Assembly (NCBI GenBank): GCA_950295325.1
Contig: OX485805.1
Location: 25,717,501 to 25,781,500, forward strand
DNA: 64,000 nucleotides
Direction of reading: 5' to 3'
From: Polytrichum commune
Taxonomy: Eukaryota > Streptophyta > Polytrichopsida > Polytrichales > Polytrichaceae
Part shown: positions 47,801-50,098 of the stretch, in pieces
Layout: each line of letters begins with the position of its first letter
Numbering within the stretch: the first letter of the stretch is position 1
The notes under the pieces: generated by a model
Told to the model about the DNA's origin: nothing
Databases searched by the model: none
What the model saw: the letters and a program-made list of their open reading frames with translations, nothing else
Translations under genes and position numbers: made by a program

Positions 47801-50098
47801 ACAATTTCATCGCCCTTCGACATTGACGCTCTAATCATCCTTCTCTAAGTCTTCTTCTACAATGTGCATAGCTTGGACACATTCTGAAACATAGAATGTC
47901 AAAGCTCCTTCCATGTGGCCTTACTCTCGTAAAGAACAAAATTATCTCCAACATTGAGCATTGCTGCCAAGGTGTGCTCATCACCAGCAACATCCCATGT
48001 TGAAGCATGGCATCAGTTATCACCCATGGCATTAGTTGATGAAGAAAGCTTTGGAATGACAAAAAGATCAGTCAACTTCAAAAGCTTTTAAAAAGAGAGG
48101 TCCAGTATAGGCAGATTTTTCTTACGTAGAGCTGGAAGAATCTGATGCCGGGTCCGACCGACGAAACCTCTTCAACGCTGCTGGTGGCCCAGGAAGAAAG
48201 GGTCTGCAATCGTTGCACACTACATAATTTTAAGAAGCTCCCTAAATTCCCCACAGAAAAGTCAAGAATACTCAATTCCCATCCCTGAAGATAGGACACT
48301 CAACAAGAACACGAGAATGTGCTAGTAATCATTGTATACGAGTCCTTGCTTGTAATCGAAATCCACCAATCTACTAGCTGCCATGATTGATATGAGATTA
48401 CGACAAATACACATAACGTTTGATGGAAGCCTAGAATCGTATATTCTAGAATGTTGAAACGCATACCATGATTGTGCCTGCAGCGGAGACGGCCCTCGCA
48501 GTAGCCAACTCGCCTGCAAGCAAGCAGCAAACGAACGTGGTGCCAACATCTTAAATTCTGTCAGAGAACGAGACATCGGACATATGATGATCATAGCAAA
48601 ACAAAATGGGAGATGACGAATTACCATATGACTCATTCCGGGATTCCTTGCCCTCTGGATGCGCCATGCTGCATGGCCGTGGGGGCAACCATGATGAGCA
48701 TGGAAGCCTTGAATCCCATGAACAAGGAAATGGAGATGGACATATGATTAATCTTAGACATCTCAAAAAAAATGACAAATAACGAAATAGCAATTGACTC
48801 ATTCCAAGATTCCTTGCCCTCCGGATGCGCCATTAGCTCCATGGCCATGGGGGCAACCATGATGGGCATGGAAGCCTGAAATCCCATGGCCATGGACCTA
48901 TCATACATCATATCGGAAACAAATGACAAATAACAAAATAGCAGATGACGGATTTTGAGGATTCCTTACCCTCTGGATGCGCCATTCGCTGCATGGCCGT
49001 TGGGGCGACCATGATGGGCATGGAAATCTTGAACCCCAGCACTGTGGTGCTCAGGTCAACGCTAGTGACGTCCACGAGAATGCGGGGGCGGAACCTGCAG
49101 GTGGTGGAGAAATCCACTAAAAGGGTCAAGTTTCAAGATTAGCACTACAATCGTTGTGGTCGAATGAAAAAAGAGAGAGAGATGGAGCCAGCCGTAAGTT
49201 GGTGTGAACAAGAGACACGAGAGACACTTCCTGCTTCGTTCGCCCTTGGTTACAGCCGCAAACTCAGATGTAAAGTCGACGTCGTCAGGTTCACGGAGCG
49301 TGGCTAAGCGTGTCTATTGTCTCCTCCCGGAGGTGGTCTCATTTGGGAAAAGCCAGAGGCTCCTCTGTGATCTTGTGTACTAAAATGTTGTTAAATGTTG
49401 TGGGTGTTTGAGATTACAATCAGGGAGATCTGACCGCTAGTTACAGATGTCAGAGCCGGTTGAGTTTGAGGAATAACCGCTTCAAGTTCAAGACTTTAGG
49501 CAGATCGTCGATCATTTTAGAGGAATCTATGAAATTATAAAGAAAAACCTTAAGATATCAATATGTACAACCGGTTGGACTTGAAAACACTAGAATCTCG
49601 ACCGATTTTGTCCATATTCTCTCCATTCGCATATCTCAGGTGGTGAGTAGGTGCTTTGAGTGGCCGGATTGATGGGAGATTGTCATCTTGAGGTTGGGAT
49701 GGATGGGTGGTTTTGGTATGTTGAGCATGTCTGTCCAGATTCAAACGCGAGCGGCCCCCGGAGAGGTTAATTGGGAGAGATTCGCTAGCCCTCGAATGAG
49801 AGAAAACTAAGTTTCAGATTTTGTTAGTCTTGGGGTGTAGGTGCGCGGGTCTGGTGGGCTTGTGAATGCTACTACAACAACTACCACTACTACTATGATG
49901 AAGCAAAAGTAAAGAGGCGCCAAAAACATGTGTTCTTGAGTGACCACCACACCTGATGCGCTCAAATGCGCTTCGATTCTCCTTCAAGGTCCATTGATCC
50001 TCCGCACCAGAAGCGTAGTAGTCATACACCATCTTTGGAAGCTTCTGCCTCGCGAGCTCCTCATACTCCGCCACGTTCACAACTTCGTTGTTCGCCAT
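44822..50098 (-). CDS. GLO: Peroxisomal glycolate oxidase / (S)-2-hydroxy-acid oxidase, 11 exons, 368 aa
   Basis: Exons in transcript order: 50098-49953, 49094-48970, 48513-48467, 48203-48126, 47648-47524, 47068-47002, 46891-46829, 46673-46604, 46408-46308, 46123-46019, 45001-44822. All junctions are GT/AG with matching phases (1107 nt). This FMN enzyme oxidises glycolate (and related 2-hydroxy acids) to glyoxylate and H2O2 in the peroxisome; it is the photorespiratory step in leaves. Residues equivalent to the spinach active site are present: Tyr27, Trp111, Tyr132, Lys233, and His257/Arg260 in [17 protein letters not shown] (loop), [11 protein letters not shown] and IGRPVVFG (FMN phosphate binding) also match. 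The C-terminal SRM is a PTS1 peroxisome signal. Length is typical (367-371 aa). Trp111 favours glycolate use, but a GLO4- or HAOX-type isoform cannot be excluded. Intron 2 holds partial copies of exon 2, and intron 10 holds copies of the exon 10 donor. Confidence 0.96.
45002..46018 (-). repeat. Tandem array in GLO intron 10, about 200-bp units in a 406-bp higher-order pattern
   Basis: The + motif GACTCCAGATGC, which at 46022 belongs to the real end of exon 10, recurs near 45211, 45412, 45618 and 45818 (spacings about 201, 206, 200, 204). Other shared blocks: AATCAGGAGAATTTGGATAA, GCTGTAGAATTGCAT, TGCAAAATGGAGGTCAAGGA, GAGCTTCAT.GAGACTGAAATC. Units 1 and 3 resemble each other (CACTTACAAAG and AACTTACGACT), as do 2 and 4 (TTGCAAGTCTT.CAAA), giving a two-unit period. 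Confidence 0.85.
46558..46583. repeat. T11-G15 double homopolymer in GLO intron 8
   Basis: A T run followed directly by about 15 G, roughly 20 bp inside the intron 8 donor (46603) on the minus strand, where it reads C15A11. Length is unreliable. Confidence 0.75.
47110..47428. mobile_element. Element related to the OPT intron 2 fold-back, in GLO intron 5
   Basis: The right end (CCGAACATGGATAGTG, TTGTATGCAAAACAACGAGC, TCCCAACCAAAA at 47381-47428) matches the right arm of 36811-37060. The left end is a degraded inverted version around GGAGAGTTCGT and TGCATACAATATC. The interior has a GGTTCATTGA../TCAATGAACC inverted pair near 47256-47325. Confidence 0.6.
48651..48725 (-). pseudogene. Partial duplicate of GLO exon 2 in intron 2, distal copy
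   Basis: Minus-strand translation [17 protein letters not shown] matches real exon 2 ([17 protein letters not shown]). A 2-nt deletion after ATGCAG then shifts the frame relative to MAHPEG. The donor position reads GAGG|GCAAGG rather than GAGG|GTAAGG. It sits 318 bp from the real exon 2 end. Confidence 0.9.
48817..48895 (-). pseudogene. Partial duplicate of GLO exon 2 in intron 2, proximal copy
   Basis: Minus-strand translation [18 protein letters not shown] then MAHPEG keeps the exon 2 frame throughout. The donor GT has become GC (GAGG|GCAAGG). It lies 152 bp from the real exon end (marker at 48969 versus 48817). A TTTCAG precedes the copy at its upstream side. Confidence 0.92.
49422..49620 (+). 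repeat. Dispersed repeat R2 in GLO intron 1
   Basis: GGGAGATCTGACCGCTAGTTAC, CCGGTTGAGTTTGAGGAATA, TTCAAGACTTTAGGCAGATC, ATTTTAGAGGAATCTATG, GATATCAATATGTACAACCGG, ACTTGAAAACACTAGAATC. It is antisense to GLO. Confidence 0.8.

What the first reader, a model, noticed from the sequence alone, without database searches (positions are those of the whole stretch)
48640..49094. GLO exon 2 splice junction is present three times in tandem
The last roughly 75 bp of exon 2 plus roughly 80 bp of intron recur twice inside intron 2 (markers at 48969, 48817, 48651; spacing 152 and 166 bp). One copy is fully in frame ([18 protein letters not shown] then MAHPEG); the other has a 2-nt deletion. In both extra copies the donor GT is GC. 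This captures partial exon duplication in a conserved enzyme with donor decay, or a GC-AG donor that might still be used.
Basis: seen in the sequence. Interest (0 to 1): 0.75.

Follow-up and report, generated by a model that had tools for sequence, protein, structure and literature searches.

The report
Repeated splice junction inside plant introns
A plant photorespiration gene carries leftover tandem copies of an exon end and its splice signal inside an intron, most likely inert by-products of local DNA duplication that lengthened the intron, and the same kind of event is seen in a second intron of this gene and in two other genes of the genome.

Summary
The gene is an intact 11-exon, 368-aa glycolate oxidase (GLO) on the minus strand. 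The last 69 nt of exon 2, its donor and about 75 nt of intron occur three times in tandem (78-84% identical). The authentic donor is GT; both extra donors are GC. The "in-frame" copy is out of frame with exon 2 and lies beyond an in-frame TGA at 48910. Using either GC site as alternative donor takes in that stop; of 15 cassettes, 14 hit a premature stop and the last needs a 5-nt intron. The GC sites score below all 30 donors of three GLO paralogs. Changes in the extra copies are mostly amino-acid altering, plus a frameshift. Among 174 exon matches of four gene families, 4 show donor-crossing tandem copies: two GLO, one ALDH, one S10 peptidase. Best explanation: junction-spanning tandem duplication that lengthens introns; extra copies leave with the intron. 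No RNA data.

The parts
48970..49094 (-). GLO exon 2 (authentic), ends in phase 1; its last 69 nt (49038-48970) are the exonic part of unit 1
   Evidence: Gene model joined from 11 exons gives an intact 368-aa protein; matches spinach glycolate oxidase 1gox at 2.5e-201
48894..49038 (-). Unit 1 of the intron-2 array: exon-2 tail + GT donor (48969) + intron
48738..48886 (-). Unit 2: exon-tail copy, GC in place of the donor at 48817
   Evidence: matrix score 3.3
48578..48718 (-). Unit 3: exon-tail copy with 2-nt deletion, GC in place of the donor at 48651
   Evidence: matrix score 3.3
48908..48910 (-). In-frame TGA (codon 111) reached if exon 2 is extended towards either GC donor
48467..48513 (-). 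GLO exon 3, authentic acceptor before 48513
46019..46123 (-). GLO exon 10; its last 15 nt open the intron-10 array
45002..46033 (-). Intron-10 array: five ~200-bp units (46033-45830, 45829-45633, 45632-45424, 45423-45223, 45222-45002; boundaries set by eye) in order A B A B A', each with an exon-10-tail copy; units 3 and 5 keep GT donors at 45617 and 45207
   Evidence: u1-u3 88.8%, u2-u4 86.6%
44822..45001 (-). GLO exon 11

Best explanation
These are the remains of local tandem duplications of DNA whose one breakpoint lay inside exon 2 and the other inside intron 2. Because the original exon and donor stay upstream, splicing from the original GT donor to exon 3 still gives normal GLO mRNA. The extra exon-tail copies sit inside a longer intron, are removed with it, and drift. 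The simplest order is: one duplication made a copy X; X lost its donor (GT to GC); X was then duplicated into copies 2 and 3. The same process, in at least two rounds, built intron 10 (AB, then ABAB plus a terminal A-like unit). Shown here: tandem structure, intron sequence within every unit, coding decay, shared GC, non-productive outcome of using the extra donors, recurrence. Inferred: that the authentic donor is the one used in RNA, the order of events (modest support), and a slippage, unequal-exchange or end-joining type of DNA mechanism.
For: Each unit joins exon tail directly to intron sequence, so it was copied from DNA, not from mRNA. The gene is otherwise intact. Paralog C2 has an intron 2 of 99 nt without copies and no tandem pair in its 4-kb locus. 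Codon by codon, copies 2 and 3 carry I to A (shared), K to Q, T to M, Q to E and R to L (copy 2), P to L and a 2-nt deletion (copy 3); synonymous differences assignable to them are two, both in copy 2. Copy 1's own changes where the paralogs polarise them (GGG, CCA) are synonymous. Extra GC donors score 3.3, below the minimum of 4.7 among 30 authentic donors. Intron 10: five units, E = 8e-161 for the best pair. The same arrangement occurs in an ALDH gene (L016, three copies, donors GT/AT/GT) and an S10 peptidase gene (L038, two copies).
Against: Between copies 2 and 3 the exonic part is 61/67 identical and the intronic part 58/74 (Fisher p = 0.06), a hint of slower change in the exon copies that pure drift does not predict; conversion or composition could cause it. 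The ALDH copies do not repeat it (a2-a3 exonic 29/42, intronic 120/157). The pairing of copies 2 and 3 is only modestly supported: intronic columns group 2-3, 1-2 and 1-3 at 10, 7 and 5 sites. Not every extra donor decayed: intron 10 unit 5 has TTT|GTAAGT (7.1), stronger than the authentic TTT|GTGAGT (5.2). No RNA and no related species were available.
Confidence: 0.88

Rival explanations
1. The extra donors are used as alternative donors that create premature stops and so down-regulate GLO through nonsense-mediated decay (a functional decoy array).
For: Use of the extra donors extends the exon into an early stop: codon 111 in intron 2, codon 334 in intron 10. Two intron-10 decoys are good GT donors (5.2 and 7.1).
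Against: In intron 2 both sites are GC and score below all 30 authentic donors. Counted by eye, the copied donor was lost in four lineages of copies (GLO intron 2, GLO intron 10 B units, ALDH a2, S10 s2) and kept in three. The arrays are absent from both GLO paralogs at these introns.
Confidence: 0.06
2. A copy is an alternative cassette exon or mutually exclusive exon that changes the protein around the end of exon 2.
For: Copy 2 keeps an open frame of its own, [24 protein letters not shown].
Against: Of 15 acceptor/GC-donor combinations, 14 give a premature stop and the one in-frame case needs a 5-nt intron. The copy is partial, lacks the 5' part of exon 2 and has no copied acceptor.
Confidence: 0.02
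3. Assembly artefact.
For: Tandem repeats can be mis-assembled; reads were not available.
Against: Copies differ at 16-22% of aligned sites, unlike the near-identical copies that assembly errors give. The same pattern recurs at places on other contigs.
Confidence: 0.02
4. Products of reverse transcription of an intron lariat, or of gene conversion from another GLO gene.
For: In intron 10 the repeat ends just before the acceptor, in the region where a branch point is expected (expectation from general knowledge).
Against: Every unit starts in the exon tail upstream of the donor, which an excised lariat does not contain. The own-genome search with the 455-bp block lists only itself and the exon-2 region of the C2 paralog (that search skips common words, so it is not proof of absence).
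Confidence: 0.02

Closest known systems
Potato RdRp gene PGSC0003DMG402000361, tandem duplication across an intron-exon boundary (PMC4974935; abstract, introduction and results read)
   Same: Local tandem duplication in a plant gene with one breakpoint in an exon and the other in an intron; splice signals copied along.
   Different: There the acceptor side was copied and a new intron with an inserted exonic segment arose, backed by RNA-seq. Here the donor side was copied, in several copies, and an existing intron only grew; no new intron is predicted.
[quoted passage not shown] Gao and Lynch 2009; Hellsten 2011; seen only as cited in PMC4974935 and in passages of PMC3443670)
   Same: Tandem duplication as the DNA event; duplicated splice-site sequence.
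Drosophila novel intron positions by tandem duplication or sliding (PMC2891723; abstract and section list seen)
   Same: Regional tandem duplications of coding sequence near splice sites.
   Different: Those give novel intron positions; here the intron position is unchanged.

Membership tests
Plant glycolate oxidase (GLO), FMN-dependent 2-hydroxy-acid oxidases | Full-length match to solved glycolate oxidases | tested here: met
   residues 5-362 match 1gox, E 2.5e-201
Plant glycolate oxidase (GLO), FMN-dependent 2-hydroxy-acid oxidases | Intact reading frame and canonical GT-AG introns | tested here: met
   11 exons, 368 aa, no internal stop; ten GT donors and ten AG acceptors
Junction-spanning intragenic tandem duplication | Head-to-tail copies that contain both exon and adjacent intron sequence | tested here: met
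Junction-spanning intragenic tandem duplication | Absent in an undisrupted relative | tested here: met
   paralog C2 has a 99-nt intron 2 without copies and no tandem pair in its locus; paralog C7 has none at these two introns; other species not testable
[quoted passage not shown]
   intron positions 2 and 10 are found in both paralogs (sequences, donors); assumes the authentic donors are the ones used
Functional GC-AG intron | GC donor with otherwise strong consensus, used in RNA | tested here: inconclusive
   AGG|GCAAGG scores 3.3 vs 4.7-11.9 for authentic donors; RNA use not testable here
Tandem (mutually exclusive) exon duplication | Complete extra exon with its own acceptor and donor in a compatible phase | tested here: not met
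   no acceptor copied; 14 of 15 combinations give a premature stop and the other needs a 5-nt intron

The most novel reading that the evidence does not exclude
In this plant lineage, tandem duplication with one breakpoint in an exon tail and the other inside the intron is a recurrent, donor-biased route of intron growth. It leaves ladders of decoy donors that are tolerated or gradually silenced, so that splice-site choice among near-identical donors can be read off natural series of copies.
Probability: 0.3. Interest if true: 0.55.

Novelty: new member of a known kind. Interest (0 to 1): 0.36.

Why it matters
It shows how introns can lengthen without changing the protein: copying a piece that spans the donor leaves the upstream original in charge. 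Arrays such as intron 10, where a downstream copy keeps a better-scoring donor than the authentic one, are natural tests of which of several near-identical donors the plant spliceosome chooses. It also warns that gene predictors may call false exons here. The specific claim that a GC donor makes an alternative GLO is unlikely.

Tried and rejected
Chance repeat: rejected. Assembly artefact: disfavoured by 16-22% divergence. Dispersed repeat or transposon: the intron-2 block and the intron-10 array match only themselves and the C2 paralog (its exon 2 with about 20 nt of intron; its exon 10 with about 50 nt of intron) in the own-genome searches, which skip common words. Productive cassette or alternative donor: rejected in silico. 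Coding constraint on copies 2 and 3: not seen; changes are mostly amino-acid altering plus a frameshift. Lariat reverse transcription: rejected because units begin in the exon upstream of the donor. Donor-over-acceptor bias: 4 donor-crossing against 0 clean acceptor-crossing cases in 174 exon matches, sign test p = 0.125, or 0.375 if one degenerate acceptor case is counted, so not established. Clustering in GLO: 2 of 10 against 2 of 164, Fisher p = 0.017, but this gene was picked because of one of the two, so the test is biased.

Rows dropped before the count: ALDH C6:24527113 (copy runs across the end of a last coding exon, not a donor); GLO C7:37629585 (the match starts 56 nt before the true exon, so its acceptor hit holds no true coding); S10 C2:57145987 (stops inside, pseudogene-like). 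Microhomology at junctions was looked at by eye and left as not shown. Donor scores come from a matrix built from the same 30 donors, without leave-one-out.

Survey limits: the GH1 set was 69 of the 97 listed matches, those in the 14 loci that I picked by eye as having many matched exons. The family searches score only part of their candidates (12 of 90 for PF00171, 93 of 175 for PF00232). PF01301 was searched (7 matches) but not surveyed. The 174 matches include first and last exons without an acceptor or donor, and GH1 flanks were at least 1,000 rather than 1,500 bases. An earlier, cruder pass found tandem pairs in 15 of 44 loci, some of which overlap each other.

Full report
What is there. 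The gene lies on the minus strand. Eleven exons joined at GT-AG boundaries give an intact 368-aa protein that matches spinach glycolate oxidase 1gox over residues 5-362 (E 2.5e-201). Exon 2 is 49094-48970 and exon 3 is 48513-48467. Intron 2 contains two further copies of the exon-2 tail, the donor and the start of the intron. The self-alignment of 49038-48738 with 48886-48578 has E = 2e-60. Unit scores of 132 and 159 compare with a maximum of 29 in 500 dinucleotide shuffles. Units 1-2, 1-3 and 2-3 are 113/144, 114/141 and 119/141 identical.

Frame and splicing. The donor positions are 48969, 48817 and 48651 (first intron base). Extending exon 2 to copy 2 adds 152 nt (2 mod 3), to copy 3 318 nt (0 mod 3), but both pass a TGA in the exon-2 frame at 48910. 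I enumerated AG acceptors in intron 2 with the two GC donors: of 15 cassettes, 14 give a premature stop and one is in frame only with a 5-nt upstream intron. A donor matrix from 30 donors of three GLO genes gives 4.7-11.9 for those donors and 3.3 for the two GC sites; 20 of 4,050 intronic 9-mers of this gene score as high as the GC sites. The matrix was tested on its own training sites, so the authentic scores are somewhat flattered.

History of intron 2. Two other GLO-like genes were found by protein search: C2 (close) and C7 (more distant). Both have GT at this junction. Paralog C2 has an intron 2 of 99 nt without copies. In the exonic 69 nt, five sites set copy 1 against copies 2 and 3, five set copy 2 apart and one sets copy 3 apart. 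Of the first five, two have both paralogs siding with copies 2 and 3 (copy 1 changed, synonymous), one has both paralogs siding with copy 1, one has paralog C2 siding with copy 1, and one is undecided. Read by codon, copies 2 and 3 share I to A; copy 2 adds K to Q, T to M, Q to E, R to L and two synonymous changes; copy 3 adds P to L and a 2-nt deletion. That is what loss of coding constraint gives. The GC, absent from copy 1 and both paralogs, is shared by copies 2 and 3, so the simplest order is duplication, loss of GT, second duplication; conversion between copies 2 and 3 would look alike, and the intronic columns support the pairing only modestly (10 against 7 and 5). A result against simple drift: between copies 2 and 3 the exonic part is 61/67 and the intronic part 58/74 identical, Fisher p = 0.06; the ALDH array shows no such difference.

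Intron 10, not in the finding. Intron 10 (46018-45002) is almost wholly five ~200-bp units, each opening with a copy of the exon-10 tail. Units 1 and 3 are 88.8% and units 2 and 4 86.6% identical, other pairs 71-79%, so an AB pair was probably duplicated as a block and a further A-like unit ends the intron. Units 3 and 5 keep GT donors (scores 5.2 and 7.1), the authentic donor scores 5.2, and units 2 and 4 have lost it. Using units 3 or 5 would extend exon 10 by 401 or 811 nt with a stop at codon 334. The paralogs have GTAAGT and GTAAGC there, so the authentic GTGAGT looks like a derived, weaker form. The C2 paralog aligns to exon 10 and about 50 nt of the intron only.

How common. The 64-kb window holds 12 clusters of diverged tandem pairs by my grouping (E at most 1e-6, up to 2,000 bases apart). 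Paralog C7 has a three-copy array in intron 1 that starts 36 nt after the donor and ends before the acceptor, crossing neither. I tested exon matches of four families for copies of the exon end within 1,500 nt downstream and of the exon start upstream: 105 exon matches of GLO (27), Aldedh (14) and Peptidase_S10 (64) and 69 of the 97 Glyco_hydro_1 matches. Donor-side copies with at least 12 coding nt occur at 5 of 174 exon matches; one of these crosses the end of a last coding exon, leaving 4 donor-crossing cases: GLO exons 2 and 10, an ALDH exon (L016: GAG|GTAATA, copies GAG|ATAATT and GAG|GTAATA) and an S10 exon (L038: GGAG|GTTAGC, copy without donor). None of the 69 GH1 matches shows it. On the acceptor side no clean case was found; one degenerate, stop-containing S10 copy shows a match, and one GLO C7 hit proved to lie wholly in the intron. 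4 against 0 is not significant (p = 0.125).

Mechanism. The units contain intron sequence directly after exon tail, so they were copied as DNA. A tandem duplication that starts in the exon and ends in the intron leaves the upstream original intact and usable, which explains why such events can survive. A duplication that also carried the acceptor would make a new small exon, and survivors would be biased against it; this is inference. Whether slippage, unequal exchange or end joining made them cannot be told from copies this diverged.

Comparison with the literature. The nearest case I read is the potato RdRp gene, where a tandem duplication crossing an acceptor made a new intron (PMC4974935; abstract, introduction and results). 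The review PMC3443670 (passages only) calls tandem duplication the only proposed route of intron gain shown in vivo. PMC2891723 was seen as abstract and section list. PMC10487979, on MSH1 in green plants, was seen as passages and concerns much larger partial gene duplications. The searches listed no paper that by title or abstract start describes donor-crossing tandem arrays that lengthen an intron; that is a limited statement about an open-access library and capped lists. The plant is unnamed; seven large contigs hold about 406 of 408 Mb (lengths). A moss of the Polytrichum group would fit from memory, untested; a paper search with that name was not followed up.

Verdict. Observation confirmed, interpretation partly supported. 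An inert by-product of recurrent junction-spanning tandem duplication is much the likeliest reading; the chance that the GC donors matter for GLO is small.

Noticed in passing
window 45002-46033: Intron 10 of the same gene is a five-unit donor-spanning array; the last unit carries a donor (TTT|GTAAGT) that scores higher than the authentic TTT|GTGAGT.
   Followed up: yes
window 2710-3591, 6977-8015, 8788-9132, 16326-16704, 20453-21000, 32171-33271, 34430-34985, 38109-39284, 59179-59450, 61837-62674: Ten further clusters of diverged short-period tandem duplications; gene context not determined.
   Followed up: no
L016 1734-2700: ALDH exon tail + donor + intron in three copies; the middle copy has AT in place of GT and the last keeps GT.
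   Followed up: yes
L038 1600-2262: S10 peptidase exon tail + donor + intron duplicated; the second unit reaches the acceptor region, so the intron is about doubled.
   Followed up: partly
L006 978-1815: Tandem copy of the end of a large ALDH last exon, with a degenerate copy lying downstream of the stop codon.
   Followed up: partly
L004 382-1121: Paralog C7 has a three-copy array inside intron 1 that starts 36 nt after the donor and does not cross either splice site.
   Followed up: partly
G000 contig C14:10478-11908: A GH1 match in a 601-aa open frame on contig C14, outside the seven large contigs and unlike the multi-exon GH1 genes; possibly bacterial contamination.
   Followed up: no
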